A stretch of 64,000 nt of DNA, taken from positions 48,182 through 112,181 of the forward strand of contig CALFUN010000012.1 in assembly GCA_937929915.1 (NCBI GenBank), read 5' to 3'. Numbering within the stretch: the stretch's first letter is position 1; each line of letters starts with the position of its first letter. This document shows, piece by piece, positions 7,819 through 32,985 of the stretch. The translations under genes were made by a program, and so were the position numbers. The notes under the pieces were generated by a model. The model had not been told where the DNA came from. It saw only the letters and a list, made by a program, of their open reading frames with translations, and ran no database searches. This stretch comes from an uncultured Caulobacterales bacterium. GTDB lineage: Bacteria > Pseudomonadota > Alphaproteobacteria > Caulobacterales > Maricaulaceae.

Positions 7819-7839
7819 TTTCCGATTGACGTTCGAAAA
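7819..7839. promoter_or_regulatory. Predicted TetR-type operator, site A (kstD promoter)
   Basis: A 21-bp imperfect palindrome with left arm TTTCCGATT, 3-nt centre GAC and right arm GTTCGAAAA. It is one of four related copies in the window (also 15268, 23527, 32965). It lies 39 bases upstream of the kstD-like start. A -35-like TTGACG (7826-7831) lies inside it, with TATATAGACA following (7845-7854), so a bound regulator would block the promoter. The assignment to the TetR protein at 32995 is an inference. Confidence 0.65.
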
Positions 7840-7878
7840 GTGCCTATATAGACATTACTTATAAGCTTTGGGGACTAT

Positions 7879-9543
7879 ATGGATAGTATTGACGTAGATG
7901 TTTTAGTGGTCGGCTCTGGCGCGGGCGCTTTAACGGCTGCGATTACAGCCCATGACCATGGCGGCAAAGTTCTCGTGGTTGAAAAATCCGATATGTATGG
8001 CGGGACATCGGCCACGTCAGGCGGCGGTATTTGGATTCCCTGTAACCACCTGATGGCCAAACACGGACAAAGCGATACACCGCAGGCGGCGCTCACATAT
8101 CTGAAAGCTTGTATCGGCGATGCCGTCTCCGAGGATCGTTTGAAAGCCTATGTTGAAAATGCGCCAAAAATGCTCAAAGATATGGAAGATAAATCCGATA
8201 TTTGTTTTGTTGCGACACCCTATGCGGATTACTTAACTGAAAAAGAAGGTAGTAAAGATGGCTGGCGCACGCTTGACCCTGTGCCGATGTCCGCAACGAA
8301 ACTTGGTAAAGAGTTTTTCAATATGCGCCCGCCGCATCCGCAGACAATTTTTGGCGGTTTTACAATTACCGTCAATGAAGCCAAAAAGATTATTACGCGG
8401 GCGAAAGGCTGGAAGATGATTATGGCCAAGCTCATGCTGTCTTATCGTCTGGATATTCCGATGCGAATGAAGAGTAAGCGCCATCGCCGCTTATGTCTTG
8501 GCAATGCTTTGGTGGGACGATGCCTGACCTCTGCTTTTAAACGGAAAATACCAATCTGGCGCAATAGTCCGTTAAAGTCTTTGATTGAAACACAAGGCAA
8601 AGTGACGGGGGCTATCATCACCAAAGATGGTGTGGATATGCAGGTCAATGCCGCGCGAGGTGTGATTTTAGCCGCAGGCGGGTTTGAGCATAATACAAAC
8701 ATGCGCGAAGAAAACCTGCCAGGCCCAACCGATACAAAATGGAGCGCAACACCAGGACAAAATACGGGGGATGCACATATTGCTGCGGCAGCTGTAGGGG
8801 CGAATTTAACATTGATGGATGCGGCGTGGTGGGGGCCATCTGTGCGGTTGCCGCATAATGACAGATCGCGTGTATTATTTGCGGAACGTGCCTTACCTGG
8901 AGTCTATATCGTCAATCATAAAGGTGAACGTTATCTTAATGAGGCGGCCAGCTATGATGAGGTTGGGCGTAAGCTTCAAGCGCACCCAAAGACAAGCTGG
9001 GTTATATTCGATCGCCGCGCGCGCGAGAAATACGGCATTGGCCCGCTTTATCCAACGGCCGTCCATCCAGACAGTAAATGGACGGATGCGATTAAAGCTG
9101 TGGTGAAAAAATCAGATACGATTGCAGGGCTTGCGGAGCTTATAGGCGTGGATGCGGCTGGCCTTGAAAGTACAGCTGAGAAAGTTGCCAGATATTCTGA
9201 AACGGGCATCGATGAAGATTTTGCTTCGGGTAGCACATCTTATGATCGTTATTATGGCGATCCGTCTATCACGCCAAATCCATGCCTTGCGCCGCTTGCA
9301 AAAGCGCCATTTTACGCCTTCCCCGTTTATCCTGGCGATATAGGCACAAAAGGCGGTGTAGATGTGGATGTTAACGCACAAGCGCTCAATAAAAAAGGCA
9401 CGCCGATTGGCGGGCTATATGCGACAGGCAATACGGCTTCATCTGTCATGGGATATACATATCCGGGCGCGGGATCTACGCTTGGCCCTGCCATGACATT
9501 TGGCTATGTCGCGGCCCGGCATGCCATGGGGGCCAATACATAA
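7879..9543 (+). CDS. kstD: 3-ketosteroid dehydrogenase, KstD-like FAD flavoprotein
   Basis: A 554-residue flavoprotein of the fumarate reductase/3-ketosteroid dehydrogenase family. The N-terminal ADP-binding motif VVGSGAGALTAA covers residues 11-21 and is followed by EKSDMYGGTSATSGGGIWIP. The C-terminal GYTYPGAGSTLGPAMTFGY contains the Tyr and Gly that contact the 3-keto group in KstD. KstD inserts the delta1 double bond that leads to A-ring aromatisation and B-ring opening; related delta4(5alpha)-dehydrogenases share these motifs, so the regiochemistry is not certain. It heads a unit with the downstream sulfatase, with GGGGA before the ATG and operator site A upstream. Confidence 0.82.
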   Translation: MDSIDVDVLVVGSGAGALTAAITAHDHGGKVLVVEKSDMYGGTSATSGGGIWIPCNHLMAKHGQSDTPQAALTYLKACIGDAVSEDRLKAYVENAPKMLKDMEDKSDICFVATPYADYLTEKEGSKDGWRTLDPVPMSATKLGKEFFNMRPPHPQTIFGGFTITVNEAKKIITRAKGWKMIMAKLMLSYRLDIPMRMKSKRHRRLCLGNALVGRCLTSAFKRKIPIWRNSPLKSLIETQGKVTGAIITKDGVDMQVNAARGVILAAGGFEHNTNMREENLPGPTDTKWSATPGQNTGDAHIAAAAVGANLTLMDAAWWGPSVRLPHNDRSRVLFAERALPGVYIVNHKGERYLNEAASYDEVGRKLQAHPKTSWVIFDRRAREKYGIGPLYPTAVHPDSKWTDAIKAVVKKSDTIAGLAELIGVDAAGLESTAEKVARYSETGIDEDFASGSTSYDRYYGDPSITPNPCLAPLAKAPFYAFPVYPGDIGTKGGVDVDVNAQALNKKGTPIGGLYATGNTASSVMGYTYPGAGSTLGPAMTFGYVAARHAMGANT

Positions 9544-9563
9544 TTTAAATCATAAAGGGGACA

Positions 9564-11162
9564 ATGATGGTGAAGAAACTATTAGCTATTTTAGCAGTGA
9601 TTTTGATTGCGGGTTTTGTTTTTGTAAAAGTGAAATTTCGCAAAGTCGCATCGTCTGATTTTGATTTCCCGACGGCACAAACGGTGAATCTGGCTTCGCT
9701 TGTTAAAGAGAGGCCCGCAGATGCGCCCCCGCCTAATATTGTTATATTGCTCGCCGATGATTTAGGCTGGGCCGATGTTGGTTATCATGGCAGTGATATT
9801 CAAACTCCCAATATTGACCGCCTTGCCAAAGAAGGCATGCGGCTAGAGCGGTTCTATGCTACGCCATTTTGTACGCCGACGCGGGCGGCCCTTATGACAG
9901 GGCGCGACCCGATTAAATTGGGCGCAGCGCATGCTGTTTTCATGGCATGGGATAATGGCGGCATTTCCCCGACAGAACGGTTTATGCCTGAAGACTTCAG
10001 AGAAGCTGGCTATGAAACGGCGATGATTGGCAAGTGGCATTTAGGCCATACGATTGAGCAACACACGCCAAATGCGCGCGGTTTTGATCATTTTTATGGA
10101 CATTTCAATACAGATGTTTTGTATTTTGATCACACTTTTGCAGGCGGGCATGATTTCCAAGAAAATGGCAAAACGGTCAGCCATGCGGGTGAATATGCCA
10201 CGGATGTTCATGGTAATCAGGCGACGCGTTTCATCAAAGAAATTCGCGACCCAAATAAGCCATTTTTCCTTTATGTGCCGTTTCTGGCTCCGCATTCTCC
10301 TATCGAAGCCAAACCCGAAGATATTGCCAAATATCCAAACCGCATAGACACGCCGCGCGCGCCGATGAAAACCTACGCAGCTATGGTGGATAGTCTTGAT
10401 CAAGCCATTGGCCGTATTTTGGATAGTCTTGATGAGCAGGGCGTTGCTGATAATACGATTGTTTTATTTTTCTCTGATAATGGCGGATTTCGGAATTTTG
10501 GCGGTGTGAATACGCCGCTGCGCGGGGGCAAACTCGAAGCTTACGAAGGCGGTGTTCGCGTCACATCTGTCATGCGCTGGCCTGATGTTTTGCCCGCTAA
10601 TACGGTGAATGAAAATGTATTATCCGTTATGGATGTCTATCCGACCTTGATGAAGGCGGCAGGTGTGACGCCGAATTATAAAAAGCAAATAGACGGTCTT
10701 GACCGCTGGGATGCTGTCAAAGGGAAAGGCGATAAAGACCGCGGGCAGCCGCTTATCTTTACATCAAATGTGCCTATTTATAATAAATTTAAATATGGCG
10801 TTCTCGACGGGCCATGGAAATTGGTACAAGAGGTTGACCATCAACGCCGTGTAACAGAGGTAAAGACTGAGCTATTTAATGTCTGGATGGATCCGAATGA
10901 AACGGCGGATATTTCCTCGGAAAATCCTGCACAAGTCGAGCGCTTGACAAATATCTTAGATAAGCGCCTCGCATTGCACCCGATTGGCGGACAATATGTC
11001 AAAATCCAGCCACATCCCGGTTGGCGCGCTCCGCATGATTATGCAGATGTGGTCATTCCAGCCGATCAAGTTAAAGAGGATATGTGGACAGGTTTTGGCC
11101 CGCTTGCGACGACCGTGCTGCAAAAAACGCACGGTGAAAAGGGACGCATTAAATATGATTAG
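9564..11162 (+). CDS. Arylsulfatase, type I (formylglycine), N-terminal membrane anchor
   Basis: A 532-residue sulfatase of the alkaline phosphatase superfamily. Residues 5-22 form a hydrophobic signal anchor, which places the enzyme in the periplasm. The metal-binding LLADDLGWAD is near residue 62. Cys103 in FCTPTRAALMTGRDP is the CxPxR site where Cys is converted to formylglycine. The GKWHLGH motif and the FFSDNGG metal site follow. The enzyme hydrolyses sulfate esters. Its place directly after kstD suggests a sulfated steroid as substrate (inference). It is clearly a paralogue of the sulfatase at 19307: both end in a conserved HPGWRAP segment and LQK...KG.I.YD. ATAAAGGGGAC before the ATG is a good ribosome-binding site; a second ATG follows directly at 9567. 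No formylglycine-generating enzyme gene is in the window. Confidence 0.85.
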   Translation: MMVKKLLAILAVILIAGFVFVKVKFRKVASSDFDFPTAQTVNLASLVKERPADAPPPNIVILLADDLGWADVGYHGSDIQTPNIDRLAKEGMRLERFYATPFCTPTRAALMTGRDPIKLGAAHAVFMAWDNGGISPTERFMPEDFREAGYETAMIGKWHLGHTIEQHTPNARGFDHFYGHFNTDVLYFDHTFAGGHDFQENGKTVSHAGEYATDVHGNQATRFIKEIRDPNKPFFLYVPFLAPHSPIEAKPEDIAKYPNRIDTPRAPMKTYAAMVDSLDQAIGRILDSLDEQGVADNTIVLFFSDNGGFRNFGGVNTPLRGGKLEAYEGGVRVTSVMRWPDVLPANTVNENVLSVMDVYPTLMKAAGVTPNYKKQIDGLDRWDAVKGKGDKDRGQPLIFTSNVPIYNKFKYGVLDGPWKLVQEVDHQRRVTEVKTELFNVWMDPNETADISSENPAQVERLTNILDKRLALHPIGGQYVKIQPHPGWRAPHDYADVVIPADQVKEDMWTGFGPLATTVLQKTHGEKGRIKYD

Positions 11163-11171
11163 GAAATATGA

Positions 11172-12863
11172 TTAGGGCTTAATATCAGGCTGTATCCGCA
11201 GACGGCCATGATAGGCCCCAACAAAGATGCGGCCCTTTTCATCAATCACTGGCCCAGAAAATAGGCTATTATATTTTTGTCCGCCCATAATGTAATGAAA
11301 GCTAGGCTCACCAGTTAACCAGTCTACCGCCTCAACTGTCCATTCATGATTGCGTGCGCCAATGAAATAGACTTGACCAGACCCCGTTGAAACCCACGGC
11401 ACGCCATTAGGGGAGCTGATCGTTTCATTCACCCAGGCTTTTTCGATACGGCGCAAGACGGGGTTCCATTCGAATTTTTGGATGCCGTAAGGTTGATATT
11501 TTGGATTATTACCAAGCGGACCGATAATGGCTCCGCGGCCAACGCCTTTTTTGGGGAAAAAGAACGGTGCATTACGCGGTGTGTTATTGACGACAAGTGC
11601 GCCGTAACCTGCGATAATAACGGTTTGTTCGGATTGAATATTCGTGACATTTAAATCGCCCATATCTGCGGGGGCTTGACCTGCGATACGGCGAGACGGC
11701 GCGCCGTCAAGCTGCGTCCAATCATCAGGGATGTCGTCGCGCCACATAAGTACGACATTCATGCGAATATCGCCATCTGTGAATACAACAAAGCGGTTTT
11801 CATCGCCAAACCCCATCAAGCTTGGCGTTGCGCCCGTGCCTTCGCCTGTGCCGTTGCGATATTGCGCGCTCCATGCGCCGTCTGACGGGTCAATGGACAG
11901 CGCATCGCCTGTCCAAATGACTTTATGCATATGATTGCGAGAGGCGACATAAATGCCGCCATCTTTATCAATGGCGATAGAATTACGCACCCAACCATAG
12001 CCAACACCGTGGGTTTTTGTATCTTCTATGTCTGAATATTTCAAAGCGGTCGATCGATATTCGGTTAAATCAGGAGATACGGCAATCAGCGTCCCATTTT
12101 CCATCGGAAAGATTATCCAACCATCATAGGTCATATTCATCCCAACGCTCGCGCCAGCTAAATGCTCGGGGAGTTGGAAGCGAGCCTTCTCAACGATTTT
12201 GGAGTCAGCATCACCGTCTATGGCATCACCATAAGCAATGACAGAGCCGTCATTATGCGCGATATAAAACCAGTTATTCATACCAATAACAGTATAAACA
12301 CCAGAGAGTGATTTTAACGGTAAGAGAGATTTGACCGCTGTTACAATCGCAGTTGCGCCGTTATTTTTATCTAATTTTGCGATAATTTTATTAGCCCAAT
12401 CTTCATTCCATTTATCTGCAACATCGGATTTCAAATGGTCGATAAGGCGGTAGCTTTCATAGTCGAGTTTAAAGACGCCATTAACCCCATTGGTCCATAA
12501 GACACGGCGGCCATCCTCATATTTGCTGGAGGTAGATGCTCCAAAATGCCCAGGGCCAAGGAATTGATAGGCAATTTCATGACTGTCTAAACGGCGCGTT
12601 TTATCTATCGGGCCTGAAAGAGGTGTGGAGTCTTGCTGGGCTGGGTCACCATGCGGAATGGGGTTTACACCTTGGGCTGCCATTGGATTAACTTCAGGAA
12701 AATTCATATCAATAGGCGCGCTGGATGGGTCTATCATTTGCGGAGCAAGGGGCAGGTCTAAATCAGGACGAGGGGCAGGCGGGCCAAGCTCGCAGTTTTT
12801 TAAAAGACCAAAAGCAATGAGGGCCAAAACTATGAATGCGAATATCTTGAGAAATCGTTTCAT
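11172..12863 (-). CDS. Membrane-anchored beta-propeller-like protein, unknown function (copy 1)
   Basis: A 563-residue protein with a hydrophobic N-terminal anchor (residues 5-21) followed by a Pro-rich linker, so the body is probably periplasmic. The rest is rich in repeated beta-strand units of the type IAIDKDGGIYVASRNHMHKV and GWIIFPMENGTLIAV, as in PQQ-like, SMP-30-like or YVTN beta-propellers. I do not recognise a catalytic motif and do not assign a function. It is distantly paralogous to the protein at 36965: same length class, same anchor, a shared NS.A.DK.G.YV block and a shared G.G.SP.LMG-type block. It is last in a minus-strand group with an aldehyde dehydrogenase and two SDRs, and converges on the first sulfatase gene, so a role in steroid handling is likely but unproven. 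GAGG precedes the ATG. Confidence 0.7.
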   Translation of the reverse strand: MKRFLKIFAFIVLALIAFGLLKNCELGPPAPRPDLDLPLAPQMIDPSSAPIDMNFPEVNPMAAQGVNPIPHGDPAQQDSTPLSGPIDKTRRLDSHEIAYQFLGPGHFGASTSSKYEDGRRVLWTNGVNGVFKLDYESYRLIDHLKSDVADKWNEDWANKIIAKLDKNNGATAIVTAVKSLLPLKSLSGVYTVIGMNNWFYIAHNDGSVIAYGDAIDGDADSKIVEKARFQLPEHLAGASVGMNMTYDGWIIFPMENGTLIAVSPDLTEYRSTALKYSDIEDTKTHGVGYGWVRNSIAIDKDGGIYVASRNHMHKVIWTGDALSIDPSDGAWSAQYRNGTGEGTGATPSLMGFGDENRFVVFTDGDIRMNVVLMWRDDIPDDWTQLDGAPSRRIAGQAPADMGDLNVTNIQSEQTVIIAGYGALVVNNTPRNAPFFFPKKGVGRGAIIGPLGNNPKYQPYGIQKFEWNPVLRRIEKAWVNETISSPNGVPWVSTGSGQVYFIGARNHEWTVEAVDWLTGEPSFHYIMGGQKYNSLFSGPVIDEKGRIFVGAYHGRLRIQPDIKP

Positions 12864-12927
12864 AATTTAGTGCCTCAAGGATGTGCAGTTGCGCGTGCCA
12901 AATGCGCTACGTAATTATATTTAAAGG

Positions 12928-14346
12928 TTATTTCTGAATGGCCTTCATAATTAGCTTTGTATATCGTTCCGAATAAGGGGGTAGTTGAATAAGAAAATCT
13001 CGGAATTTATCTAAAGGTTGATGCACAACAGAGCGCTCATTTGACATAGAGCGAAAGCCTTCATAACCGCCAATACGGCCCATGCCAGAATTCCCAATAC
13101 CACCAAATGGCAAGCGCGGATTTGTGCCAGATTGGATGCAATTATTATTGACAACCGCAGAGCCTGATGAGGTGTTATCTAGGAAATACTCAATATTATC
13201 ATCATTGGTCGAATAGATATAAATCGCAAGAGAATTTCTACGCGGGGCGATATGAGATAAAACTTCATCGCGGGTTTTATACCCTATGACGCATAAAACA
13301 GGCCCAAAGACTTCTTCTTGCATAATGGCCATATCTTCGGTGACATCTGTGATGATTGTCGGTTCAACATAATTATCTTCGATGTTGACGGTGCCGCCGC
13401 TCACAAGACTTGCGCCTTTTTTGATAGCATCATCCATCAAGGTTTTAATACGCTGTGTGTGGCGTGCATTGATGATGCGCGGGACATATGCGGAATTATT
13501 TAGCCCTGCACCGTCTGAATTATAAAGCGCGTTGATTTTATCCGTCAATAATGTTTGAAATTCCTCTTTCACACTTTCATGTATAATGGCGTAATCGGGC
13601 GCAATGCAGACTTGCCCCGCATTCATGACGCGGCCCCAAGCGAGCTTGGTGGCGGCGTTTTCAAGCTTGGCGGTTTCGTCAATGATGACGGGATTTTTCC
13701 CGCCCATTTCTAATGTGATAGAGGCAAGATTATTTGCCGCCGCTTTCATGACGATCTTTCCTATGGCTGTCCCGCCTGTATAATAAATATGGTCAAAGGG
13801 CTGTTCTAATAAGGTTTTGGCGACTTCAACATCGCCTAGAAAAACCTCAGCTTCGTCACGCGGAAAGGCTTCATGAACGATGTCTTGAATGATTTGAGCA
13901 GAGTGCGGCGCAAGTTCCGAAGGTTTTATCGCAACAGCATTGCCCGCCGCCACAGCGGCTAACATTGGCACAAAGCTCTCCGCCGTGGGCGCATTATAAG
14001 CCGCCATATTCAGTACGACCCCTTTGGATTGGCGGCGGATTTCACAGCGTTTACCCATGGTGGCGAGTGAGTTTTTAATCTTTTCGGCTTTCATCCATTT
14101 GGGCAGGTTTTTTATAATGAAATCCATTTCTGTTTTGAGCATGACAAGTTCAGCCGCCATATCCAGATCATGAGTGCCGCGCTCTGTATGGGCGGCTTTG
14201 AATAAATCATCCTTGCGCTTAATCGTTGCATCCCAAAGCGCGTTCATCCGCGCGCTGCGTTCACTGGCAGAGCTGTTGCGCAGACGCGATGTAGATGATT
14301 TTAATAACTTAAATTTTTCGGAAATATCGGGTGTGTTTTCAACCAT
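12928..14346 (-). CDS. NAD(P)-dependent aldehyde dehydrogenase
   Basis: A 472-residue aldehyde dehydrogenase of the class 3/coniferyl-aldehyde-dehydrogenase type. The cofactor-site GGTAIGKIV, the general-base Glu in LEMGGKNP and the nucleophilic Cys in NAGQVCIAPDY are present, and the C-terminal NSGMGRIGG.GF motif is typical of this subfamily. It oxidises aldehydes to acids. In a steroid island a plausible substrate is an aldehyde formed when a side-chain alcohol is oxidised, for instance after P450 hydroxylation (inference). It starts three bases after the stop of the SDR gene and probably shares its operator-controlled promoter. Confidence 0.85.
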   Translation of the reverse strand: MVENTPDISEKFKLLKSSTSRLRNSSASERSARMNALWDATIKRKDDLFKAAHTERGTHDLDMAAELVMLKTEMDFIIKNLPKWMKAEKIKNSLATMGKRCEIRRQSKGVVLNMAAYNAPTAESFVPMLAAVAAGNAVAIKPSELAPHSAQIIQDIVHEAFPRDEAEVFLGDVEVAKTLLEQPFDHIYYTGGTAIGKIVMKAAANNLASITLEMGGKNPVIIDETAKLENAATKLAWGRVMNAGQVCIAPDYAIIHESVKEEFQTLLTDKINALYNSDGAGLNNSAYVPRIINARHTQRIKTLMDDAIKKGASLVSGGTVNIEDNYVEPTIITDVTEDMAIMQEEVFGPVLCVIGYKTRDEVLSHIAPRRNSLAIYIYSTNDDNIEYFLDNTSSGSAVVNNNCIQSGTNPRLPFGGIGNSGMGRIGGYEGFRSMSNERSVVHQPLDKFRDFLIQLPPYSERYTKLIMKAIQK

Positions 14347-14349
14347 GAC

Positions 14350-15225
14350 TTAGCCTTTATACTGCGGAATGCCGACGGCTTTTTGAATTGTCTTTTCAAA
14401 GGCGCGTTCGGGCATGATAGCGAGCATGACTTTCATCGGTTTTACATCTTTGCCTACGAGGTAGCGCGGTTTCCATGTTTTTTTATCCAGTAACGCCAAG
14501 ACCTCATCGGTAACATAATCTGGTTCATTACCTTTATTAATTTGTTCCACCATTTTAGTGGTGGTTGTTTCCAATAGATGGGGTGCGTAAACAGACTTCA
14601 CATCTTCGGATATATTTTGCCAAATATGTTTTGTCGTTTCTTCGGCATTGGCGCACATATTGGTTTTAACGGCTCCAGGCTCGATAGAAGTTACTTCAAT
14701 CCCGAACGGGGCGAGTTCATTACGTAAGGTACAGGTTAAGCCTTCAACCGCCCATTTGGACATGTTGTAACTCCCAGAACAAGCGGGATTGGCGCGCACC
14801 GCCCCAGAGGCAAAATTCATAATACGCGACTCTGCGCCGCCTTTGCGGATCATAGGTAGAAAAGCTTGGCAAACACGCATAGGGCCGAATGTATTGACTT
14901 CAAAAATGACTCGCATTTCTTTCATCTTTATACCTTCAATCGGCCCTGTACCGACATTGGCGATGCCAGCATTATTAATTAAAAGATTAAGCGGACGCTC
15001 GCCTAAATGTTTGGCTACGGCTTTTGCGCTTTTAGTAACCGATGCGTCTTTTGTGACATCTTGTTCAATCGGAACGAGATTTTCATGCGTCCCAAGCTCG
15101 GAGCTATCCCCGCCAGGGAGCACACCTGCAAAGACTTGCCAGCCGCGCTCTGCGAGCTTACGGGCCATCATCGCGCCCATCCCCATATTCGCGCCAGTGA
15201 TAAAAGCTGTTTTTTGATTGGCCAT
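14350..15225 (-). CDS. Short-chain dehydrogenase, retinol/17beta-hydroxysteroid dehydrogenase-like
   Basis: A 291-residue classical SDR. The cofactor motif TGANMGMG is near residue 10, NNAG follows, and the catalytic residues lie in FASGAVRA and SYNMSKWAVEG. The C-terminal part with Pro-rich PRYLVGKD resembles the vertebrate 17beta-HSD/retinol dehydrogenase group, whose members oxidise or reduce steroid and retinoid alcohols. It is the first gene after operator site B, with GGGGAATAAC before the ATG, and leads the unit SDR, aldehyde dehydrogenase, beta-propeller protein. A hydroxysteroid or side-chain alcohol substrate is likely but not shown by the sequence. Confidence 0.75.
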   Translation of the reverse strand: MANQKTAFITGANMGMGAMMARKLAERGWQVFAGVLPGGDSSELGTHENLVPIEQDVTKDASVTKSAKAVAKHLGERPLNLLINNAGIANVGTGPIEGIKMKEMRVIFEVNTFGPMRVCQAFLPMIRKGGAESRIMNFASGAVRANPACSGSYNMSKWAVEGLTCTLRNELAPFGIEVTSIEPGAVKTNMCANAEETTKHIWQNISEDVKSVYAPHLLETTTTKMVEQINKGNEPDYVTDEVLALLDKKTWKPRYLVGKDVKPMKVMLAIMPERAFEKTIQKAVGIPQYKG

Positions 15226-15267: not shown

Positions 15268-15288
15268 TTTCCGAACGACATTCAGAAA
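15268..15288. promoter_or_regulatory. Predicted TetR-type operator, site B
   Basis: A 21-bp imperfect palindrome with left arm TTTCCGAAC, centre GAC and right arm ATTCAGAAA. It lies 42 bases upstream of the minus-strand SDR gene starting at 15225. On that strand a TATAAAAT-like -10 element follows a few bases after the palindrome, so the site would overlap the -35 region, as at site A. Confidence 0.65.
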
Positions 15289-15355
15289 AGCCTAAGCCGC
15301 GCTATGAGTCAAGATAAGAGGTACGTCTTGGCTTGTGAATCTGAAAAGCTTAAGC

Positions 15356-23164: not shown

Positions 23165-23170
23165 TTGAGT

Positions 23171-23485
23171 TTACGCATCTGGCGCGATTTCAATATTTAT
23201 ACCATCATGAGCCTCTGTGATTTTAATTTGGCAGGATAGGCGCGAGCCTGCACGAATATCAACAAATTCCTCTAAACCTTCCAGCATATATCCCTCGTCT
23301 TCGGTTCGTGCGCCAGCGATAGACTTATCTGCAAAATAAACGTGACATGTGCCGCAACTCGCTGCACCGCCGCATGTGCCTTCAACAAGACCGAGTGCGC
23401 TTAAAGCGTCCATCATAGACGCGCCTGTATGTGCTGTGATTGTTTTCGTTTTGCCGCTTGCCGTTGTGACGTTAATTTTTGGCAT
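23171..23485 (-). CDS. 2Fe-2S ferredoxin, adrenodoxin/putidaredoxin type
   Basis: A 104-residue [2Fe-2S] ferredoxin. The cluster ligands Cys38, Cys44, Cys47 and Cys85 have the C-X5-C-X2-C...C spacing of adrenodoxin-type ferredoxins. These proteins pass electrons to cytochrome P450s. A P450 gene lies at 33687, and both promoters carry the same palindromic operator, so the ferredoxin is a good candidate partner for it (inference). The Rieske oxygenase at 35113 is another possible acceptor. No ferredoxin reductase gene lies nearby. Confidence 0.85.
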   Translation of the reverse strand: MPKINVTTASGKTKTITAHTGASMMDALSALGLVEGTCGGAASCGTCHVYFADKSIAGARTEDEGYMLEGLEEFVDIRAGSRLSCQIKITEAHDGINIEIAPDA

Positions 23486-23526
23486 GTTTACCTCTTTACG
23501 GGTTGACTGTGAGCGTGTTGTAGCTA

Positions 23527-23547
23527 TTTTCGAACAGCGTTCGGAAA
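23527..23547. promoter_or_regulatory. Predicted TetR-type operator, site C (ferredoxin / CoA-transferase divergence)
   Basis: A 21-bp palindrome with left arm TTTTCGAAC, centre AGC and right arm GTTCGGAAA. It lies 41 bases from the minus-strand ferredoxin start and 81 bases from the plus-strand CoA-transferase start, so it could control both divergent units. Confidence 0.68.
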
Positions 23548-26043: not shown

Positions 26044-26080
26044 TTGGACGGGTTTGTCGTTGGAAATGGAGACATAAATC

Positions 26081-26470
26081 ATGAGACCTGATCCGATACA
26101 GCGCATTGATACGGCTTTTTTTTGGGAGGCTTGTGCGCGCGGTGAATTTGTCGCCCAAAAATGTGAGCCTTGTAATAAATTATGGCACCCGCCGCGGCCT
26201 ATGTGCCCTGATTGTCATTCTTTAGAAAAATCGGTAGCGACCTTATCAGGAAACGCCAAAGTTTTATCTTGGGTGCGCCAAGTCAGGCCCGCAAGTTATG
26301 GCTTTCAAGAGAGCCCTATTGTCATTCTCGTCGAACTTGAAGAAGGTTTGCGCATGGTGTCCAACTGGATTGGAGAGACACTGCCCCAGATTGGTGATGA
26401 TGTTAAAGTAGAATTTGCGCCAACATCAGGCGGCAAAGCTGTACCTGTTTTTAAAAAGGTATCAGCATAA
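26081..26470 (+). CDS. DUF35 OB-fold protein, partner of Ltp2-type aldolase (ChsH2 DUF35-like)
   Basis: A 129-residue protein with an N-terminal rubredoxin-like zinc ribbon (Cys28, Cys31, Cys42, Cys45; HPPRPMCPDC) and a C-terminal OB-fold. In steroid degradation the DUF35 domain of ChsH2 binds Ltp2 and is required for retro-aldol cleavage of the C17 side chain. Here it is a separate protein rather than fused to a MaoC domain. The stop overlaps the start of the Ltp2-like gene (TAATG), which fits a stoichiometric complex. Confidence 0.85.
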   Translation: MRPDPIQRIDTAFFWEACARGEFVAQKCEPCNKLWHPPRPMCPDCHSLEKSVATLSGNAKVLSWVRQVRPASYGFQESPIVILVELEEGLRMVSNWIGETLPQIGDDVKVEFAPTSGGKAVPVFKKVSA

Positions 26471-27627
26471 TGCCCGCCGCGCATGAACAGGCCTGCATTG
26501 TAGGTATTGGCCAGACCGAGTTTTCTAAAGCCTCTGGTCGCTCTGAACAACAGCTCGCTGCCGAAGCGGTTCTGAAAGCTTGCCAAGATGCGGGTATTGA
26601 TCCGAAATCTATTGATGGCATGCTAACTTTTGATTTGGACAATTCAGACGAAGTTGACATCATGCGTTCGCTAGGTTGTGAGGCTATCAAATATACAGCC
26701 CGCTTGCCGCAAGGCGGCGCGTCATCTGTATCAACGATTGTTCATGGCAAACACGCCGTTGAAGCTGGGTTTTGCGATGTAATGGTGATTTGGCGTGCCA
26801 TGAATGAACGCTCGCAATATCGCTTTGGGCAGCCCCATCATAGTATGAGCCCTGATGCGCATAGCTCGACATTTATGGAATGGTGTTTTCCTTTTGGCGC
26901 GCAAACGCCTGCGGCTTGGGAAGCTTTGTCATGCGGGCCATATATGCATAAATTTGGCGTTACCTCCGAAGATTTAGGCCGCATTGCTGTCACGTTCCGC
27001 AAGGCGGCAGCGACTAATCCTGCGGCTTGGTTTTATGGTAAGCCAATTACACTTGACGATCATCAAAGCTCGCGCTGGATTGTCGAACCGACTTTGCGGC
27101 TATTAGATTGTTGTCAGGAATCTGATGGCGGTGTGGCTATTCTTATCACGCGGGCAGACAGGGCTAAAGATTTAAAGCAAGTGGCTGTGCGTATTTTAGG
27201 TGCGGAATATTCGATGTTATTTAATCATGAGATTATTTCTGATTTTTATGCGGGAGATTTAATTCGAACTGAAAATAGCGAAAGTGTTGCTGATAAGCTC
27301 GCTGTCACAGCTGGGCTTGCCCCAAAAGAAACAGATGTGGCGATGATCTATGATAATTTCACACCGCAAATTCTGCGCCAACTTGAAGGTTTTAAATATT
27401 GCGGTATTGGCGAGGCGAAAGATTATGTGGCGGATGGACATTTGGAATTGGACGGGACAACACCGCTCTCTCCTAATGGGGGATTGATGGGCGAAGGTTA
27501 TATTCATGGTATGAATAATATTACCGAAGGTGTACGCCAAATACGCGGTACAGCCGCCAACCAGATTAAAAATGCGCAAACAGCTTTCTTAGCCTCGGGC
27601 GTAGCTGGCGCGATTATAGGACGATAG
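26470..27627 (+). CDS. ltp2: Steroid side-chain aldolase, Ltp2-like (thiolase superfamily)
   Basis: A 385-residue thiolase-fold protein matching actinobacterial Ltp2: VGIGQTEFSKASGRSE at the N terminus, WFYGKPITLDDHQSSRWI, LLDCCQESDGGVAI, and GGLMGEGYIHGMN. The canonical thiolase nucleophile context is missing, as expected for aldolases of this group. Tyr294 (IYDNFTP) and Tyr344 (EGYIHGMN) lie in the two Tyr motifs conserved in Ltp2-type aldolases. With its DUF35 partner, Ltp2 cleaves 17-hydroxy-3-oxo-pregnene-carboxyl-CoA to androstenedione and propionyl-CoA. Its presence shows that steroids with a C17 side chain are a substrate class, rather than only C19 androgens. Confidence 0.87.
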   Translation: MPAAHEQACIVGIGQTEFSKASGRSEQQLAAEAVLKACQDAGIDPKSIDGMLTFDLDNSDEVDIMRSLGCEAIKYTARLPQGGASSVSTIVHGKHAVEAGFCDVMVIWRAMNERSQYRFGQPHHSMSPDAHSSTFMEWCFPFGAQTPAAWEALSCGPYMHKFGVTSEDLGRIAVTFRKAAATNPAAWFYGKPITLDDHQSSRWIVEPTLRLLDCCQESDGGVAILITRADRAKDLKQVAVRILGAEYSMLFNHEIISDFYAGDLIRTENSESVADKLAVTAGLAPKETDVAMIYDNFTPQILRQLEGFKYCGIGEAKDYVADGHLELDGTTPLSPNGGLMGEGYIHGMNNITEGVRQIRGTAANQIKNAQTAFLASGVAGAIIGR

Positions 27628-27630
27628 ATT

Positions 27631-27936
27631 ATGGGCGAGATATTTAAACCTGGTGTAAAGCTGTCTAGCGCAGTTTGTAAAACGCAAATTATGGCGCTGC
27701 GCGTGCCCGCCAGTGAGCTAGATGTAAAATGCGGCGGTGTGCCGATGCAGATCGGGGATCCAGAACAGCTATTAGATGCGGTCGGCGAGATGAGCGGCAC
27801 ACTTGTTGGAAAACGTTATGTGGACGAGCAAGACACAATGGAATTTCTTTGTACGCGCGGCGGCGAAGGTACAGTCTCTGTCAATGGGAAGGCTCTAGAT
27901 ATTAAACAAGCCAAGCAATTACCCAGTTCTGATTAG
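27631..27936 (+). CDS. Small conserved protein of unknown function
   Basis: A 101-residue protein starting three bases after the aldolase stop. I do not assign a function. It has two Cys (SAVCKTQIM and VKCGGVPMQ), a CGGVPM motif and an acidic body, and no signal peptide or membrane segment. I have an unverified impression that similar small proteins sit next to acyl-CoA ligase genes in steroid clusters. Its tight place between the aldolase and the CoA ligase suggests a role in the same pathway, perhaps as an accessory subunit. Confidence 0.6.
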   Translation: MGEIFKPGVKLSSAVCKTQIMALRVPASELDVKCGGVPMQIGDPEQLLDAVGEMSGTLVGKRYVDEQDTMEFLCTRGGEGTVSVNGKALDIKQAKQLPSSD

Positions 27937-27948
27937 GCTATATTTTTC

Positions 27949-29403
27949 GTGAATATTTATCTTATTTTGCAAATGGCGAGCGAAGCGATGGGCGCGCGAG
28001 AGGCGCTTATTTGCGGTGATGCGCGTATGACATTTGCAGAGTTAGAGCTAAGTGCAAGGTGTGTTGCGGCAAATATTACGCAGGGGGAAAAATTAGGGTT
28101 TTTAGCTGAAGCATCCCCAGCCTTTCCCGCGGCTTTATTTGGCGCAGCGCTCGCAGGCACGCAATTTATCCCGCTTAATTATCGGCTGTCAGTTGAACAA
28201 TTAAATACGCAAATGCAGCGTATTGCACCTGCAAAACTCATAACAGATAAAGCGCTTTCGATAGATAAAATCATACCGATTATGCCTCATGAAGTTGTAA
28301 ACGGCGCGCCTTATCCGGGCGATGCGCCTGATATTGATGGCGGGGTTGCGGTGGAGTTATTTACGAGCGGCACGACAGGAGATCCAAAATCTGCGATTTT
28401 GCGGCATTCCAATTTAATGGCTTATATTTTCGGCACTGTAGAATTTATGAGCGCTGGCGAAGATGAAGCCGCGCTACTCACTGTGCCGCCTTATCATATT
28501 GCAGGTATCGCCGCTGTCCTTAGCTCCACCTATGCCGGGCGGCGTATGGTACAGCTTCCAAATTTTGCTCCAGAAAACTGGATAGCTTTGGCGCAAAAAG
28601 AACATGTAACTCATGCATTTTTAGTCCCGACAATGTTACAGCGTATTACCGAATATGCAGGCGATAAGCTTGATTTACCGAGCTTGCGTAATGTGGCTTA
28701 TGGCGGAGGTAAAATGCCGCGTGCTACTATTGAAAAAGCTATGGATTTACTGCCGCATGTTAATTTTACCAATGCTTATGGTCTTACGGAAACGAGCGCG
28801 ACAATCTGCATGTTAGGGCCAGAAGATCACCGCCTAGCTCATAGCAGTCATGTGCCAGCTATTCAGCGCCGCCTTGGCTCTGCGGGACGGCCTATCCCGT
28901 CGATAGAGTTGCAAATCCGAAATATCGACAATCAAATTTGCGCACCCGAAGAGATTGGCCTCGTTTATGTGCGCGGGGACCAAGTCAGCGGTGAGTATAA
29001 GGCGTTAGGCTCACAGCTCGATGCGGATGGATGGTTTTTAACCAAAGATCGCGGCTTTGTAGATGATGAAGGCTATCTTTTTATTGACGGACGTCATGAT
29101 GATGTGATTGTGCGCGGCGGGGAAAATATATCGCCGGGTGAAATTGAAGATGTATTACGCGCGCATCAGGCCATCAAAGACGTCGCCGCTATTGCTGTGA
29201 CTGATATAGAATGGGGCGAGGCTATCGGGCTAGCGGTTGTTTGCAACGATGAGATTAGTGATGATGAAATCTGCGCGCTTATCCGTAAAAACTTGCGATC
29301 TTCTCGGGTTCCGTCTGTGATAAAACGCATGAATGCATTGCCTTATAATGAAACAGGCAAGCTGCTGCGCCGCGTCATACGTGATGAATTTACGCAAGAT
29401 TAA
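27949..29403 (+). CDS. Acyl-CoA synthetase (AMP-forming), possibly FadD3-like
   Basis: A 484-residue adenylate-forming ligase. The P-loop FTSGTTGDPKSA starts at residue 138, NAYGLTETSAT is the adenine-binding motif, DGRHDDVIVRGGENISPGEIED is the hinge, and the C-terminal catalytic Lys is in NETGKLLRR. It joins CoA to a carboxylic acid. In this operon candidates are the steroid side-chain acid or the indanone propionate (HIP) activated by FadD3; the sequence alone does not decide. The start is probably GTG 27949; no strong ribosome site is seen there, and ATG 27973 is an alternative that would lose eight residues. Confidence 0.82.
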   Translation: MNIYLILQMASEAMGAREALICGDARMTFAELELSARCVAANITQGEKLGFLAEASPAFPAALFGAALAGTQFIPLNYRLSVEQLNTQMQRIAPAKLITDKALSIDKIIPIMPHEVVNGAPYPGDAPDIDGGVAVELFTSGTTGDPKSAILRHSNLMAYIFGTVEFMSAGEDEAALLTVPPYHIAGIAAVLSSTYAGRRMVQLPNFAPENWIALAQKEHVTHAFLVPTMLQRITEYAGDKLDLPSLRNVAYGGGKMPRATIEKAMDLLPHVNFTNAYGLTETSATICMLGPEDHRLAHSSHVPAIQRRLGSAGRPIPSIELQIRNIDNQICAPEEIGLVYVRGDQVSGEYKALGSQLDADGWFLTKDRGFVDDEGYLFIDGRHDDVIVRGGENISPGEIEDVLRAHQAIKDVAAIAVTDIEWGEAIGLAVVCNDEISDDEICALIRKNLRSSRVPSVIKRMNALPYNETGKLLRRVIRDEFTQD

Positions 29404-29404
29404 T

Positions 29405-30670
29405 ATGCAAAGCGACCACGCCGCCCTTTACGCGAATAAATTACTGACGGATTTAAATGTAAAGGCTCGGATTACGGCGCAAGCGGATCATCCTGCGCTT
29501 GCATGGCAAAATTCGGGGCTATTGCAAGTCACGGGTTTAATGCTGCCATTGCCGCTCGCTAGCCATGCTGATGGTGCGTTAATGGCGCTCAAAGCCATCT
29601 CGCCTGATGCAAAAACCTTACCCAGCTATGGGAGCGCTCTGTTAGGGGAGCGGGCGCGTTTACGGCAAACCATTCGAAATGGGCGGCAATGTGCGGGTGG
29701 TTATGGGCGTTTGATGAATACAGCGGATGGCCGCATAGCGCTTAATCTTGTTCGCGATAATGACTGGGATTTGGTCCCAGCATGGCTCGAAGACTATGCA
29801 GCAAATTGGGAGAGTCTTTCAGATATTGTTCGCCAAAGATCTACGCGTGATTTAACGTTAAGAGCTGCGGAAATTGGGTTGGCTGTTGCGCAAGACATGC
29901 TGCCCGAAACGCCTAAATTATGGTTTGCGATCAAAAAATTCACAGCTAGCACTCGTCCTAAACCTCCGATAATTGTTGATCTCTCCGGGCTTTGGGCAGG
30001 GCCGCTCGCTTCAAGCCTATTGGCGATGAACGGGGCACACGTGATTAAAGTTGAAAGTCCAACACGGCCTGACGGGATGCGTTTTGGTCATCAAGGTTTT
30101 TATGATTTGCTAAATGCTGGGAAAGACTGTGTGGCGCTAAATTTTCGCAATGCTGAAGATTTGGGACATTTGAAAACTTTGCTGCATAAAGCCGATATTG
30201 TTATCGAAGCCTCGCGGCCTCGTGCTTTGCACCAAATCGGTATTTGCGCTGAAGATTTTGTTGCTGCAAAAGCTGGGAAAATATGGGCGAGGTTGACGGC
30301 TTATGGACAGGATGAAAACCGCATTGGATTTGGTGATGACATAGGGATTTCGGCGGGACTAGCAACGATTATGGAGAGGGCTCATGCGGAGCCATGTTTT
30401 GTCGGTGATGCCATTGCTGACCCTGTGAATGGCCTGCATTTAGCTTTAGCGATACAAGCAAGTTTGACACAAGGCGGCGGAGCCATAATTGATGTATCTA
30501 TGTGTGATGTTCTGCGGTATGCTATGGGCGATATACCGCAGGATTTACCGCATATAGCGCAAGATTGGCAGCAGATTGCGGATATAAATAGGCCAAGTTT
30601 TTATGATATGCGCATGCCGCGCGGAACGGTCAAAACTCTTGGCGCAGATAATTCGGTATGGCTATGTTAA
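29405..30670 (+). CDS. Family III CoA-transferase, single catalytic unit with degenerate N-terminal half
   Basis: A 421-residue CaiB/BaiF protein. Residues 1-185 are a reduced, non-catalytic segment (LLGERARLRQTIRNG, ALNLVRDNDWDLVPAWL). The CoA-binding unit begins near residue 188 (VDLSGLWAGPLASSLLAMNGA, KVESPTRPDG) and carries the expected catalytic Asp339 in IADPVNGLHLAL. This architecture is known among CoA-transferases encoded near acyl-CoA ligases. I chose ATG 29405, one base after the ligase stop; the frame is open further upstream, but that would overlap the ligase by 70 bases. It differs from the tandem enzyme at 23629 and probably acts on another acid. Confidence 0.78.
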   Translation: MQSDHAALYANKLLTDLNVKARITAQADHPALAWQNSGLLQVTGLMLPLPLASHADGALMALKAISPDAKTLPSYGSALLGERARLRQTIRNGRQCAGGYGRLMNTADGRIALNLVRDNDWDLVPAWLEDYAANWESLSDIVRQRSTRDLTLRAAEIGLAVAQDMLPETPKLWFAIKKFTASTRPKPPIIVDLSGLWAGPLASSLLAMNGAHVIKVESPTRPDGMRFGHQGFYDLLNAGKDCVALNFRNAEDLGHLKTLLHKADIVIEASRPRALHQIGICAEDFVAAKAGKIWARLTAYGQDENRIGFGDDIGISAGLATIMERAHAEPCFVGDAIADPVNGLHLALAIQASLTQGGGAIIDVSMCDVLRYAMGDIPQDLPHIAQDWQQIADINRPSFYDMRMPRGTVKTLGADNSVWLC

Positions 30671-31950
30671 TCCGAAATGCAGAGCTTAACGGACAGATCG
30701 TTGATGTCCTGATTGAGCATGGCCGTATTGTAAATATTGGAAAAAACCTTTCATGCGAGACTGTCTTTGAAGCAAAAGGCGGCGCAATATTACCAGCTTT
30801 GCACGACCATCACATACATTTAAATGCGCTTGCTGCGGCAATAAATTCTCTGCGTTGCGGCCCGCCAGAAATAACGACTAAAGCGCAATTTATTAAAGCC
30901 TTGAATGTGGCAGGCGATGGCTGGCTACGCGGCGTTGGTTATCATCATAGTGTTGCCGGCATGATAGATAGAGATTGGTTAGATAGTTACGGGCCAAAGC
31001 GTCCTGTCCGAATTCAGCATCGCAGCGGACGGCTTTGGATATTAAATAGTCTGGCGATGGATGCGTTAGGTTTGCCGGAGTCTGTCAATGGGCGCTTGCT
31101 CGATCGTGACACTATGCTTCGAACACAATTAAATTTCCCAGATTTAAAGCCGTTGATAAATAAGCTTTTATCTTATGGTGTTACGGGCGTAACTGAAGTG
31201 ACGCCGAGTAACGGGGCCGCTGAATATGAACATTACATGCAGAAGGCCGAACCTTTGCGCTTAAATGTTATGGGCAAGGCGGAGTTATCTGCACAGCAAT
31301 CGCAATATCTTAAACTACATTATCACGACCATGATTTACCGCCTTTAGATCTATTGGCGGATGAAATAGAGCAGGCCTATCATACTGGTCGAAATATTGC
31401 TGCTCATTGCGTAACACGGGCGGAACTGATGCTAACACTCGCCGCGATAGAGATGGCGGGTGCAAAACCTGGGGGCCGTATTGAGCATGCCGCGATTGCA
31501 GATGAGGCTGCGATTGAATGGATGAAAAAACTTGACCTTATTGTTGTCACCCAACCCAATTTTATCAAAGAGCGGCACGCGGCATATCTTCAAGATGTTC
31601 CAAAAAATGAACATAAAAACCTCTGGCGTTTAAAATCCTTTATAGATGCAGGTTTGAAAGTGGCCGCAGGTAGCGACGCGCCTTTTGGAAATTCAAATCC
31701 ATGGGCGGCGATGGCCGCAGCGACGTCTCGCCCTAAAGGGTTTGAATGTGAAGCCGTAACGCCTGATGCTGCTTTGGCGCTTTATACAAAACCTGCTCAC
31801 GATGCAGGAGCGGCGCCGAGGCGTATAGATATTGGGGAGCTAGCAGATATGTGCGTGCTAGATAGGACATGGCAGGCGGCGCGTGTGTCTTTGGCTGATG
31901 TGAACGTCATCGCGACATGGACGGCGGGGGAGTTGGCCTATGAGGCCTAA
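30658..31950 (+). CDS. Amidohydrolase family protein
   Basis: A 430-residue metal-dependent hydrolase of the amidohydrolase-3 (YtcJ-like) group. The metal-binding HxH is His52-Ile-His54 in LHDHHIHL. Further ligands are in IAAHCVT, GRIEHAA and the Asp of AAGSDAPFG, and the small beta-sandwich domain is split between the two ends. The family cleaves amides, carbamates and related C-N or C-O bonds. Its job in a steroid operon is not obvious: it might open a ring or remove an amide conjugate (for example of a taurine- or glycine-conjugated acid), but this is speculation. It overlaps the preceding gene by 13 bases and meets the convergent crotonase gene with a four-base overlap. Confidence 0.75.
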   Translation: MAMLIRNAELNGQIVDVLIEHGRIVNIGKNLSCETVFEAKGGAILPALHDHHIHLNALAAAINSLRCGPPEITTKAQFIKALNVAGDGWLRGVGYHHSVAGMIDRDWLDSYGPKRPVRIQHRSGRLWILNSLAMDALGLPESVNGRLLDRDTMLRTQLNFPDLKPLINKLLSYGVTGVTEVTPSNGAAEYEHYMQKAEPLRLNVMGKAELSAQQSQYLKLHYHDHDLPPLDLLADEIEQAYHTGRNIAAHCVTRAELMLTLAAIEMAGAKPGGRIEHAAIADEAAIEWMKKLDLIVVTQPNFIKERHAAYLQDVPKNEHKNLWRLKSFIDAGLKVAAGSDAPFGNSNPWAAMAAATSRPKGFECEAVTPDAALALYTKPAHDAGAAPRRIDIGELADMCVLDRTWQAARVSLADVNVIATWTAGELAYEA

Positions 31951-32939
31951 TCTATAATTGCGTCAATTAATCCCCATTCTAGCGCAGTCTTCGCTTTCAC
32001 CTTTTCCATAGATAGCGCCATATAAGCTGTTTTCTGGCGGCCAATTCTATGGGCAATACTGGCAGTGCCGCCTGCACCTGGTATAAGGCCATATTTTAAT
32101 TCAGGTAGTTGAAACCACGCTTTTGGCGAGGCTGTGACGTAGCTGCCAAATGCCGCCATTTCTGCGCCCGCGCCTATGGCTGCGCCGTTGACATGAAGCT
32201 GTAGCTTGCCTTGTAATCTAGCCAGATACCAAGCTGGCAGGCGTAAACTGCGAATCCAATGGGCGGTTGCTGGATCAGGGGTTTGCCCGAACTCTTCAAG
32301 CGCGCCGCCAATAGAAAATGTTGCGCCGTTGCCCGTTAGAATGACTTTCGAAAATTCTGTATTGGTTACGGCGAAATCCAAAGCTTCGCATAGAGCATCA
32401 CGCATTTGCGTATTCATGGCGTTGCGCGTTTTAGGATTATTGAGCTTTAAAATAAGCGTGTTGTTATCAATGTGTATATCAATGAGAGGTTGGTTTATAT
32501 CGGGCTTGCTATGCGGCAAAGATCTATTTTTATATTCCGTCAGCCATCTTTGAAATTCAGGCCCATTTTGCACGGTAGCATAGGCGAAGCTCTCCGCACT
32601 CAAGCTATCTGTTAAAGATAAAGTTTCACTGGCGCGTAAATGCTGAACCAAAATCATAGCCGCCAGAGGCGCATGGTTTATATTTTTAATCATAGCCGAG
32701 ATCTTTTTAGGCTCGGTTAAAACAACATCACAGGCGGAGCGCAGCGCCCCCGTCCCAACACCAATTATTGGGCAAGGTAAATCTTTGAGCCATTGCGATA
32801 TTTCAGGCTTTGCATCTTTGAGTTCAAAAGCAAGATAATTACGTGATGTATCAGGGCCGAAACGGTCACGTGCGGGCTTGCTGGCTGCGAGATGCTCCAG
32901 CATTTTGGCATTCATTATCTGATTTGGTAGCTTTTTCAT
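31947..32939 (-). CDS. Enoyl-CoA hydratase/isomerase (crotonase) with extra N-terminal segment
   Basis: About 330 residues. Residues 150-330 form a crotonase domain with both catalytic Glu: Glu260 in GAGAEMAAF and Glu280 in LPELKYGLIPGAGG. Residues 1-145 are a shorter segment (PCPIIGVGTGALRSACDVV, HAPLAAMILVQHLR, SAESFAYATVQ) that looks like a degenerate crotonase-like half. It probably hydrates or isomerises an enoyl-CoA in steroid catabolism. The start is uncertain: the frame is open to 33059, but those codons run through the operator palindrome, so a start after it (32939, or 32957 or 32915) is more likely. It is divergent from the TetR gene and shares its regulatory region. Confidence 0.72.
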   Translation of the reverse strand: MKKLPNQIMNAKMLEHLAASKPARDRFGPDTSRNYLAFELKDAKPEISQWLKDLPCPIIGVGTGALRSACDVVLTEPKKISAMIKNINHAPLAAMILVQHLRASETLSLTDSLSAESFAYATVQNGPEFQRWLTEYKNRSLPHSKPDINQPLIDIHIDNNTLILKLNNPKTRNAMNTQMRDALCEALDFAVTNTEFSKVILTGNGATFSIGGALEEFGQTPDPATAHWIRSLRLPAWYLARLQGKLQLHVNGAAIGAGAEMAAFGSYVTASPKAWFQLPELKYGLIPGAGGTASIAHRIGRQKTAYMALSMEKVKAKTALEWGLIDAIID

Positions 32940-32964
32940 TGACTCATGCTCTAACATATATGAG

Positions 32965-32985
32965 TATTCGAACAACGTTCGGAAA
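32965..32985. promoter_or_regulatory. Predicted TetR-type operator, site D (tetR autoregulation)
   Basis: A 21-bp palindrome with left arm TATTCGAAC, centre AAC and right arm GTTCGGAAA. It lies 9 bases before the tetR start and 25 bases from the divergent crotonase start. Being next to the tetR gene, it is the main reason to link all four sites to that regulator. Confidence 0.72.

What the first reader, a model, noticed from the sequence alone, without database searches (positions are those of the whole stretch)
7819..32985. Four copies of a 21-bp palindrome mark a steroid regulon, probably read by the TetR protein at 32995
Sites at 7819, 15268, 23527 and 32965 share arms close to TTTYCGAAC and GTTCGGAAA around a 3-nt centre. 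All four lie in short intergenic gaps in front of steroid genes; A, B and C lie about 40 bases before the kstD, SDR and ferredoxin starts, and D is next to a tetR gene. I noticed no copy inside a gene or in the paa and core regions. The AAC-NNN-GTT core recalls but differs from the AAC-NN-GTT core of mycobacterial KstR, so this may be a proteobacterial KstR analogue with its own operator.
Basis: partly seen in the sequence, partly recalled or inferred. Interest (0 to 1): 0.8.

Follow-up and report, generated by a model that had tools for sequence, protein, structure and literature searches.

The report
TetR repressor's sterol-breakdown regulon
In a relative of the marine bacterium Hellea, a 21-base palindrome sits in front of four groups of predicted sterol-breakdown genes and recurs beside the same tetR gene in all 15 genomes of the family found to carry that gene; the TetR protein likely binds it, which would make it the switch that keeps these genes off until a sterol-derived signal arrives.

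Summary
The four 21-bp sites are where stated and score 26-31 bits against a motif matrix; the next best window place scores 10.7, and 20 Mb of random DNA peaks at 20.2. A profile scan of the 2.49-Mb genome finds these four and no others at E<=1. Of 137 family genomes, all 15 with the tetR ortholog carry a near-perfect copy before tetR plus at least one more; 3 of 122 without tetR have two or more (Fisher p 2e-17). In relatives the sites sit before the same genes: Fdx/CoA-transferase, SDR-aldehyde dehydrogenase, kstD or its operon; also KshA-type, sulfatase and, once, cholesterol oxidase genes. The DNA-recognition helix is nearly invariant. A TTGAC(T) -35 box lies 18-20 bp upstream at 38 of 41 B, C and D sites, so the operator there covers the -10/start region: a repressor. 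The regulator is not KstR-like: its sequence and modelled fold are of the tetracycline-repressor class. Binding and effector are untested. Verdict: a real, new TetR/operator regulon of a known kind.

The parts
7819..7839 (+). Site A: operator before kstD-sulfatase; the deviating half contains TTGACG (7826-7831), a possible -35 box (inference)
   Evidence: conserved in L152 (G076) and L153 (G003)
7879..9543 (+). kstD, 3-ketosteroid delta1-dehydrogenase-like
   Evidence: best NCBIfam models are 3-ketosteroid dehydrogenases, below their cut-offs
9564..11162 (+). sulfatase, probable second gene of operon A
11172..12863 (-). g563, 563 aa without Pfam, NCBIfam or significant PDB match; last gene of operon B; preceded by its own site and followed by kstD in genus g19
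12928..14346 (-). aldehyde dehydrogenase, operon B
14350..15225 (-). SDR oxidoreductase, first gene of operon B
15268..15288 (-). Site B: operator; site before the same SDR gene in 12 genomes
15307..15312 (-). TTGACT, predicted -35 box of promoter B, 18 bp from the palindrome
   Evidence: 9 of 12 B sites; absent at the 3 of genus g19
22283..23485 (-). 2Fe-2S ferredoxin-like gene (23171-23485) and alpha/beta hydrolase (22283-23164), divergent arm of site C
23503..23508 (+). TTGACT, predicted -35 box of promoter C, 18 bp from the palindrome
   Evidence: 14 of 14 C sites, one as TTGACG
23527..23547 (+). Site C: divergent operator
23629..31950 (+). Operon C (extent inferred): double CaiB-type CoA-transferase, ChsH2-like OB-fold protein, SCP2-type thiolase, AMP-forming CoA ligase, second CaiB protein, amidohydrolase (sterol side-chain enzymes, inferred)
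31947..32915 (-). enoyl-CoA hydratase-like gene, divergent arm of site D (start placed at the M of 32915)
32939..32944 (+). TTGACT, predicted -35 box of the tetR promoter, 20 bp from the palindrome
   Evidence: 15 of 15 D sites
32965..32985 (+). Site D: operator overlapping the predicted -10/start region of tetR (autoregulation, inferred)
32995..33687 (+). tetR: TetR_N + TetR_C_1 regulator, 230 aa; recognition region VGTATLYQYFDSRK
33687..38557 (+). Operon D after tetR (extent inferred): cytochrome P450 (nearest solved: CYP51 and cholesterol 24-hydroxylase), KshA-like Rieske oxygenase (weakest of three KshA_C proteins in the genome), SDR, g556 (no Pfam match)

Best explanation
The palindrome is most likely the operator of the TetR-family protein encoded at 32995, which is predicted to sit on the promoters of its own operon and of three other predicted sterol-catabolism units and would repress them until a sterol-derived molecule releases it. 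Shown: site positions, no further site found in the genome, conservation of sites with tetR across genomes, nearly invariant recognition helix, a fixed distance from a -35 box at most B, C and D sites. Inferred: binding by this TetR, repression, autoregulation. Unknown: the effector. I favour an early sterol or 3-ketosteroid intermediate, possibly its CoA ester, because the controlled genes look like A-ring, side-chain-activation and sulfatase genes. In this genome the regulon covers such upper and side-chain genes, not the highest-scoring KshA gene of the contig or the paa genes.
For: (1) Site D stands before tetR in 15 of 15 tetR-bearing genomes out of 137 (own genome included). (2) Two or more sites: 15 of 15 tetR+ versus 3 of 122 tetR- genomes, p 2e-17 (relatives are not independent). 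(3) Of 46 sites in the 14 other tetR+ genomes, 42 lie before tetR or steroid-type genes. (4) In 14 of the 15 D regions (one runs off its contig) the palindrome is 98% identical by column, the 60 nt upstream 72% and the 30 nt downstream 60%. (5) TTGAC(T) 18-20 bp upstream at 36 of 36 B, C and D sites first tested (shuffles of all 55 sites: mean 1.8, maximum 6, observed 37) and at 2 of 5 B sites found later. (6) TetR residues 45-60 (turn and recognition helix) are 92% conserved versus 70% for residues 76-230. (7) A genome-wide profile finds only the four window sites in G000; in the nine tetR- genomes chosen as contrast nothing beats E 0.048. (8) Five SDR-aldehyde-dehydrogenase sites not used in building that profile were found by it (L210-L213, L216).
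Against: No binding or expression data. Three genomes have sites before the same genes but no tetR in the assembly (G069 76%, G091 82%, G087 100% complete by estimate); the adjacent P450 is missing in all three at E<=1e-100, which points to a missing contig but does not prove it. Four sites in tetR+ genomes have no steroid gene (an outer-membrane efflux gene, a carboxyltransferase, one inside a gene, one between convergent genes). The reversed control pattern also reaches two or more copies in 9 of 137 genomes, so the count alone is weaker than the positions. The TTGAC box is missing at three B sites of genus g19 and at the A, g563 and thiolase classes. Site A is before kstD in only 3 of 16 genomes. 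The strongest KshA_C gene (C12:5184) has no site nearby.
Confidence: 0.86

Rival explanations
1. The palindrome is read by another regulator (for example a second TetR), and tetR at 32995 is only one of its targets.
For: A second TetR-family gene lies at 38563-39138; three genomes carry sites at the same genes without the 32995 ortholog.
Against: The second TetR stands with paa genes, and tblastn (E<=1e-15) found no homolog of it in the fetched loci, L017-L029 included. The 32995 family is the gene that always bears the site, and its recognition helix is nearly invariant like the operator. The three exceptions also lack the neighbouring P450 gene.
Confidence: 0.08
2. The sites are SOS boxes or another housekeeping operator: the Gram-positive LexA box, as recalled, is CGAAC-N4-GTTCG.
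For: The half-site CGAAC/GTTCG is the same (motif recalled, no call).
Against: Exact half-sites with a 4-nt centre: 0 in the window and 0 in L017-L029, against 2 and 19 with a 3-nt centre. The genome has only four sites, all in one steroid region. Distribution follows tetR. lexA and recA were not looked at one by one.
Confidence: 0.01
3. The palindromes are transcription terminators or chance inverted repeats.
For: A begins 5 nt after a stop codon; two relatives have copies between convergent genes (L117, L118).
Against: C and D lie between divergent genes; sequence, not only pairing, is conserved; scores exceed anything in 20 Mb of random DNA.
Confidence: 0.01
4. The TetR protein acts as an activator from these sites.
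For: Some TetR-family proteins activate (recalled).
Against: At most B, C and D sites the operator covers the predicted -10/start region, where a bound protein would block polymerase.
Confidence: 0.04

Closest known systems
KstR (actinobacterial TetR-type repressor of cholesterol catabolism)
   Same: TetR-family protein, palindromic operator with AAC...GTT core, controls steroid genes, site before its own gene (passages of PMC8228715; Discussion part 1 of PMC8700777).
   Different: KstR motif TNNAACGTGTTNNA has a 2-nt centre, here 3 nt with longer arms; KstR aligns only over the DNA-binding domain (E 0.0034).
EdcR of Caenibius tardaugens (estrogen-responsive TetR repressor)
   Same: Alphaproteobacterial (lineage recalled), palindrome overlapping the -10 box of catabolic promoters, induced by steroid (passages and Discussion part 1 of 2, PMC8700777).
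   Different: Operator TnnCnnTACnAnTnGTAnnGnnA is unlike in sequence; estrogen pathway; the EdcR protein itself was not compared here.
TetR EGO55_16300 of the C. tardaugens bsd I bile-salt cluster
   Same: TetR gene beside an amidohydrolase and steroid side-chain genes (PMC12882949, passages and one section).
   Different: Proposed palindromes ATAGGGCCATTG and GCATGCGGGATGC differ; the protein was not compared here.
Tetracycline repressor / ActR / SimR (PF02909 TetR_C_1 class)
   Same: C-terminal Pfam family of the tetracycline repressor; these are the best sequence and fold matches.
   Different: Those respond to antibiotics and, as recalled, control efflux genes; here the neighbours look catabolic. 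About 20% identity.

Membership tests
TetR superfamily, TetR_C_1 class (PF00440 + PF02909) | Both Pfam domains above the curated cut-off | tested here: met
   31.9 bits against 24 and 25.9 against 21
TetR superfamily, TetR_C_1 class (PF00440 + PF02909) | Fold like class members over most of the protein | tested here: met
TetR superfamily, TetR_C_1 class (PF00440 + PF02909) | Binds a palindromic operator beside its own gene | tested here: inconclusive
   Palindrome conserved at tetR in 15 of 15 genomes; binding not tested
KstR | Sequence similarity to KstR beyond the DNA-binding domain | tested here: not met
   KstR chains match only residues 26-83 at E 0.0034, behind 43 other distinct sequences
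KstR | Operator TNNAACGTGTTNNA (2-nt centre) | tested here: not met
   Half-sites with a 3-nt centre, 2 in window and 19 in L017-L029, against 0 and 1 with a 2-nt centre; KstR motif from PMC8228715
KstR | Effector is a steroid-CoA thioester | not testable with these tools
   No ligand assay
EdcR | Operator TnnCnnTACnAnTnGTAnnGnnA | tested here: not met
   Column counts of 53 sites show no TAC...GTA; motif from PMC8700777
EdcR | Protein orthology to EdcR | not tested
   EdcR sequence was not fetched

The most novel reading that the evidence does not exclude
A tetracycline-repressor-class sensor, a fold known for recognising fused-ring antibiotics, has been recruited in marine Hyphomonadaceae as the master sterol sensor, with its own extended operator (GAnTTTCCGAAC-NNN-GTTCGGAAAGTC) and a core-plus-variable regulon; it evolved independently of KstR and controls sterol breakdown in free-living and sponge-associated marine bacteria.
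Probability: 0.5. Interest if true: 0.62.

Novelty: new member of a known kind. Interest (0 to 1): 0.5.

Why it matters
Regulators of bacterial steroid breakdown are few: a 2021 paper speaks of 'a very short list' (PMC8700777). Hellea and Hyphomonadaceae were predicted as marine and sponge-associated steroid degraders in a paper whose main text does not contain 'regulat' (passages of PMC5790920). A defined operator gives a handle on which genes of these mostly uncultured bacteria belong to sterol use, including unknown proteins (g563, DUF3604), and the regulator is a candidate sterol biosensor part. The cultured Hellea balneolensis DSM 19091 has tetR with sites C and D (L019) and, if G028 is the same genome as its contig length says, site B too, so the claim can be tested directly.

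Tried and rejected
Weak fifth site at 12931-12951 (10.7 bits, inside the 3' end of the aldehyde dehydrogenase gene, 68 bp before g563): rejected, since the same region in L072, L083 and L131 scores below zero; L077 has 9.6.

Rest of the contig (C12:1-48300): best score 4.6, no site. Near-matches outside the window: 24 places, of which 9 were fetched; L135-L138 lie inside long ORFs, L139-L143 hold no site at 2 mismatches or fewer; the other 15 were not looked at, and the profile scan did not list them.

Cholesterol oxidase as a general regulon member: rejected, found in 1 of 18 genomes.

TTGACT at every B site: my first 7 of 7 became 9 of 12 when the five later sites were tested.

A -35 reading of the GAC that abuts the palindrome in the A, g563 and sulfatase classes: left open, because GTC on the other side at other sites suggests an extended palindrome instead.

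KstR in the fold listings: not among the rows shown; that is no evidence of difference, and I rely on sequence.

Literature: searches (10 of 12 listed; 12 of 13 listed), judged by titles and abstract starts, showed no paper on regulation of steroid genes in Hellea/Hyphomonadaceae. One search searched three spellings of the motif and found none.
Full report
OBSERVATION. The four palindromes were read at the stated places. Each left-out site scores 25.5-26.5 bits with a matrix from the other three, against 14.3 or less elsewhere in the window. With a matrix from 19 site variants they score 26.3-31.5; the fifth place scores 10.7, and 20 Mb of random DNA reaches 20.2. A sequence-only profile from 27 sites finds exactly four sites in the 2.49-Mb genome at E<=1, all in the window (150 of 886 first-look candidates scored; the four sites are among the 27 used to build it).

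SOURCE. Of 14 loci with a TetR relative in named genomes, 11 are titled Hellea, one Hyphomonadaceae bacterium and one uncultured Caulobacterales; the fourteenth, an Acidimicrobiia locus at 29% identity, shows only a 13-bit place and none before the gene. The window is from a draft genome of 39 contigs, in the same family as, but another genus than, G028, whose contig length equals that of H. balneolensis DSM 19091.

CONSERVATION. In 13 of 13 of those loci the site stands before tetR as TATCCGAACAACGTTCGGAAA or its AGC or ATC form. I scanned 137 family genomes with TTYCGAACNNNGTTCGRAA, at most one mismatch: 28 have a match and 18 have two or more. The tetR ortholog (E<=1e-20) is in 15 of 137, and all 15 have two or more sites including one at tetR. 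Of the 122 without tetR, 3 have two or more (G077, G087, G091) and 10 have one. The reversed control pattern occurs in 31 of 137 genomes, twice or more in 9, so stray copies at this level are expected; what sets the tetR+ genomes apart is also where the copies lie. Fisher p is 2e-17; related genomes are not independent, so the figure is indicative.

WHAT THE SITES CONTROL. I fetched the surroundings of all 64 sites outside the window's genome and compared them with window proteins. In the 14 other tetR+ genomes, 42 of 46 sites lie before tetR or steroid-type genes; the four others are at an outer-membrane efflux gene (L082), a carboxyltransferase (L109), inside a gene (L113) and between convergent genes (L118). 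Of the 18 in tetR- genomes, 5 lie before regulon genes (G069, G087 and G091), one in G087 before genes without Pfam match (L103), one between convergent genes (L117), and 11 in other genomes beside no window homolog except one general SDR. By class, genomes with the site: D 15, C 14, B 12, A 3, g563 5 (a tally typed; the G072 entry was then verified). In genus g19 sites also precede a sulfatase gene, with an SDR-KshA pair on the other side in two (L092, L098, L105), a GST / ChsH2-like-thiolase pair (L096, L102, L112, L115, L120; families checked in L096 and L102 only) and once a cholesterol oxidase (L099). DUF3604 genes have the site in two genomes.

SITE A. kstD was found in 16 of 18 genomes searched. 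A site directly before it is present only in the window, G003 and G076; in G084, G085, G087 and G089 kstD follows g563, which has the site. In the remaining genomes no site was found in the flank held (up to 1.5 kb). In A the deviating half-site contains TTGACG, conserved in the three genomes, which may be an embedded -35 box (inference).

PROMOTERS. I took 55 sites with an assigned target gene and looked upstream. TTGAC(T) lies 18-20 bp before the palindrome in 7 of 7 B, 14 of 14 C and 15 of 15 D sites, in 1 of 3 sulfatase sites and in none of the other 16; the total is 37, against a shuffle mean of 1.8 and maximum of 6. Five more B sites, found later, were then tested: two have it (L210, L216) and three, all in genus g19, do not, so B, C and D together stand at 38 of 41. 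With a standard 16-17-bp spacer the operator then begins in the -10 box. This is the geometry of a steric repressor. Flanking GAC/GTC makes an extended palindrome in part of the sites.

SPACING. Exact CGAAC/GTTCG half-sites in L017-L029 occur 19 times with a 3-nt centre and 0-1 times with any other centre of 0 to 8. The 53 sites tabulated were collected with a 3-nt pattern and cannot show this by themselves.

EXCEPTIONS. G069, G087 and G091 have sites at the same genes and no tetR even at E 1e-3. The P450 that follows tetR is also missing in all three at E<=1e-100, so the cluster is probably absent from the assemblies; for G087, estimated 100% complete with 6% contamination, this is not settled. 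G077's two sites lie inside ORFs without steroid neighbours.

FUNCTION OF THE GENES. Operon C has a ChsH2-like OB protein, an SCP2-type thiolase, a CoA ligase and CaiB-type proteins, which fits sterol side-chain removal (inference). The Rieske protein of operon D is the weakest of three KshA_C proteins above cut-off in the genome (75.6 bits against 175.8 and 98.6), so it should not be called KshA without test; its best solved relatives are KshA proteins. The P450 is nearest CYP51 and cholesterol 24-hydroxylase.

KNOWN SYSTEMS. KstR and KstR2 motifs (PMC8228715, passages), EdcR (PMC8700777, passages and Discussion part 1 of 2) and the C. tardaugens bsd I TetR (PMC12882949, passages and one section) all have other operators. 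A progesterone-sensing TetR-type protein, SRTF1, is known from Pimelobacter simplex (mentioned in PMC8700777; PMC7062782 seen only in the search listing).

VERDICT. Real, conserved and specific; a new TetR/operator pair of a known kind, convergent in role with KstR. Binding, repression and effector remain to be shown.

Noticed in passing
L146-L149, L155 (kstD upstream regions): kstD genes that lack the site share another upstream pattern, TGCGTA ... TTTTTCRTTGC, clearest in L146-L148, weaker in L149 and L155; possibly the site of a second regulator. Seen by eye.
   Followed up: no
window 11172-12863 (-) and 36887-38557 (+): Two proteins of about 560 aa without Pfam or NCBIfam match are conserved inside the regulon (65-82% identity in relatives); g563 stands directly before kstD in genus g19. 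Candidates for unknown steroid-pathway functions.
   Followed up: partly
G000:C12:5184-5771, C12:13758-14339, window 35113-36135: Three KshA_C-family Rieske oxygenases on one contig; the one in the tetR operon scores lowest and its best NCBIfam match is the 4beta-methylsterol monooxygenase model (53.8 bits, cut-off 600).
   Followed up: partly
window 9564-11162, 19307-20911, 20904-22307: Two sulfatases and an alkylsulfatase-like protein with a TonB receptor in a sterol cluster suggest use of sulfated sterols.
   Followed up: no
L207:3041-4945, L209:3047-4978: DUF3604 genes (about 640 aa) have the operator about 20 nt before the start in two genomes, linking this unknown family to sterol use.
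   Followed up: partly
window 38563-39138 (-): Second TetR gene (TetR_C_24) beside paa genes, probably a separate phenylacetate regulator.
   Followed up: no
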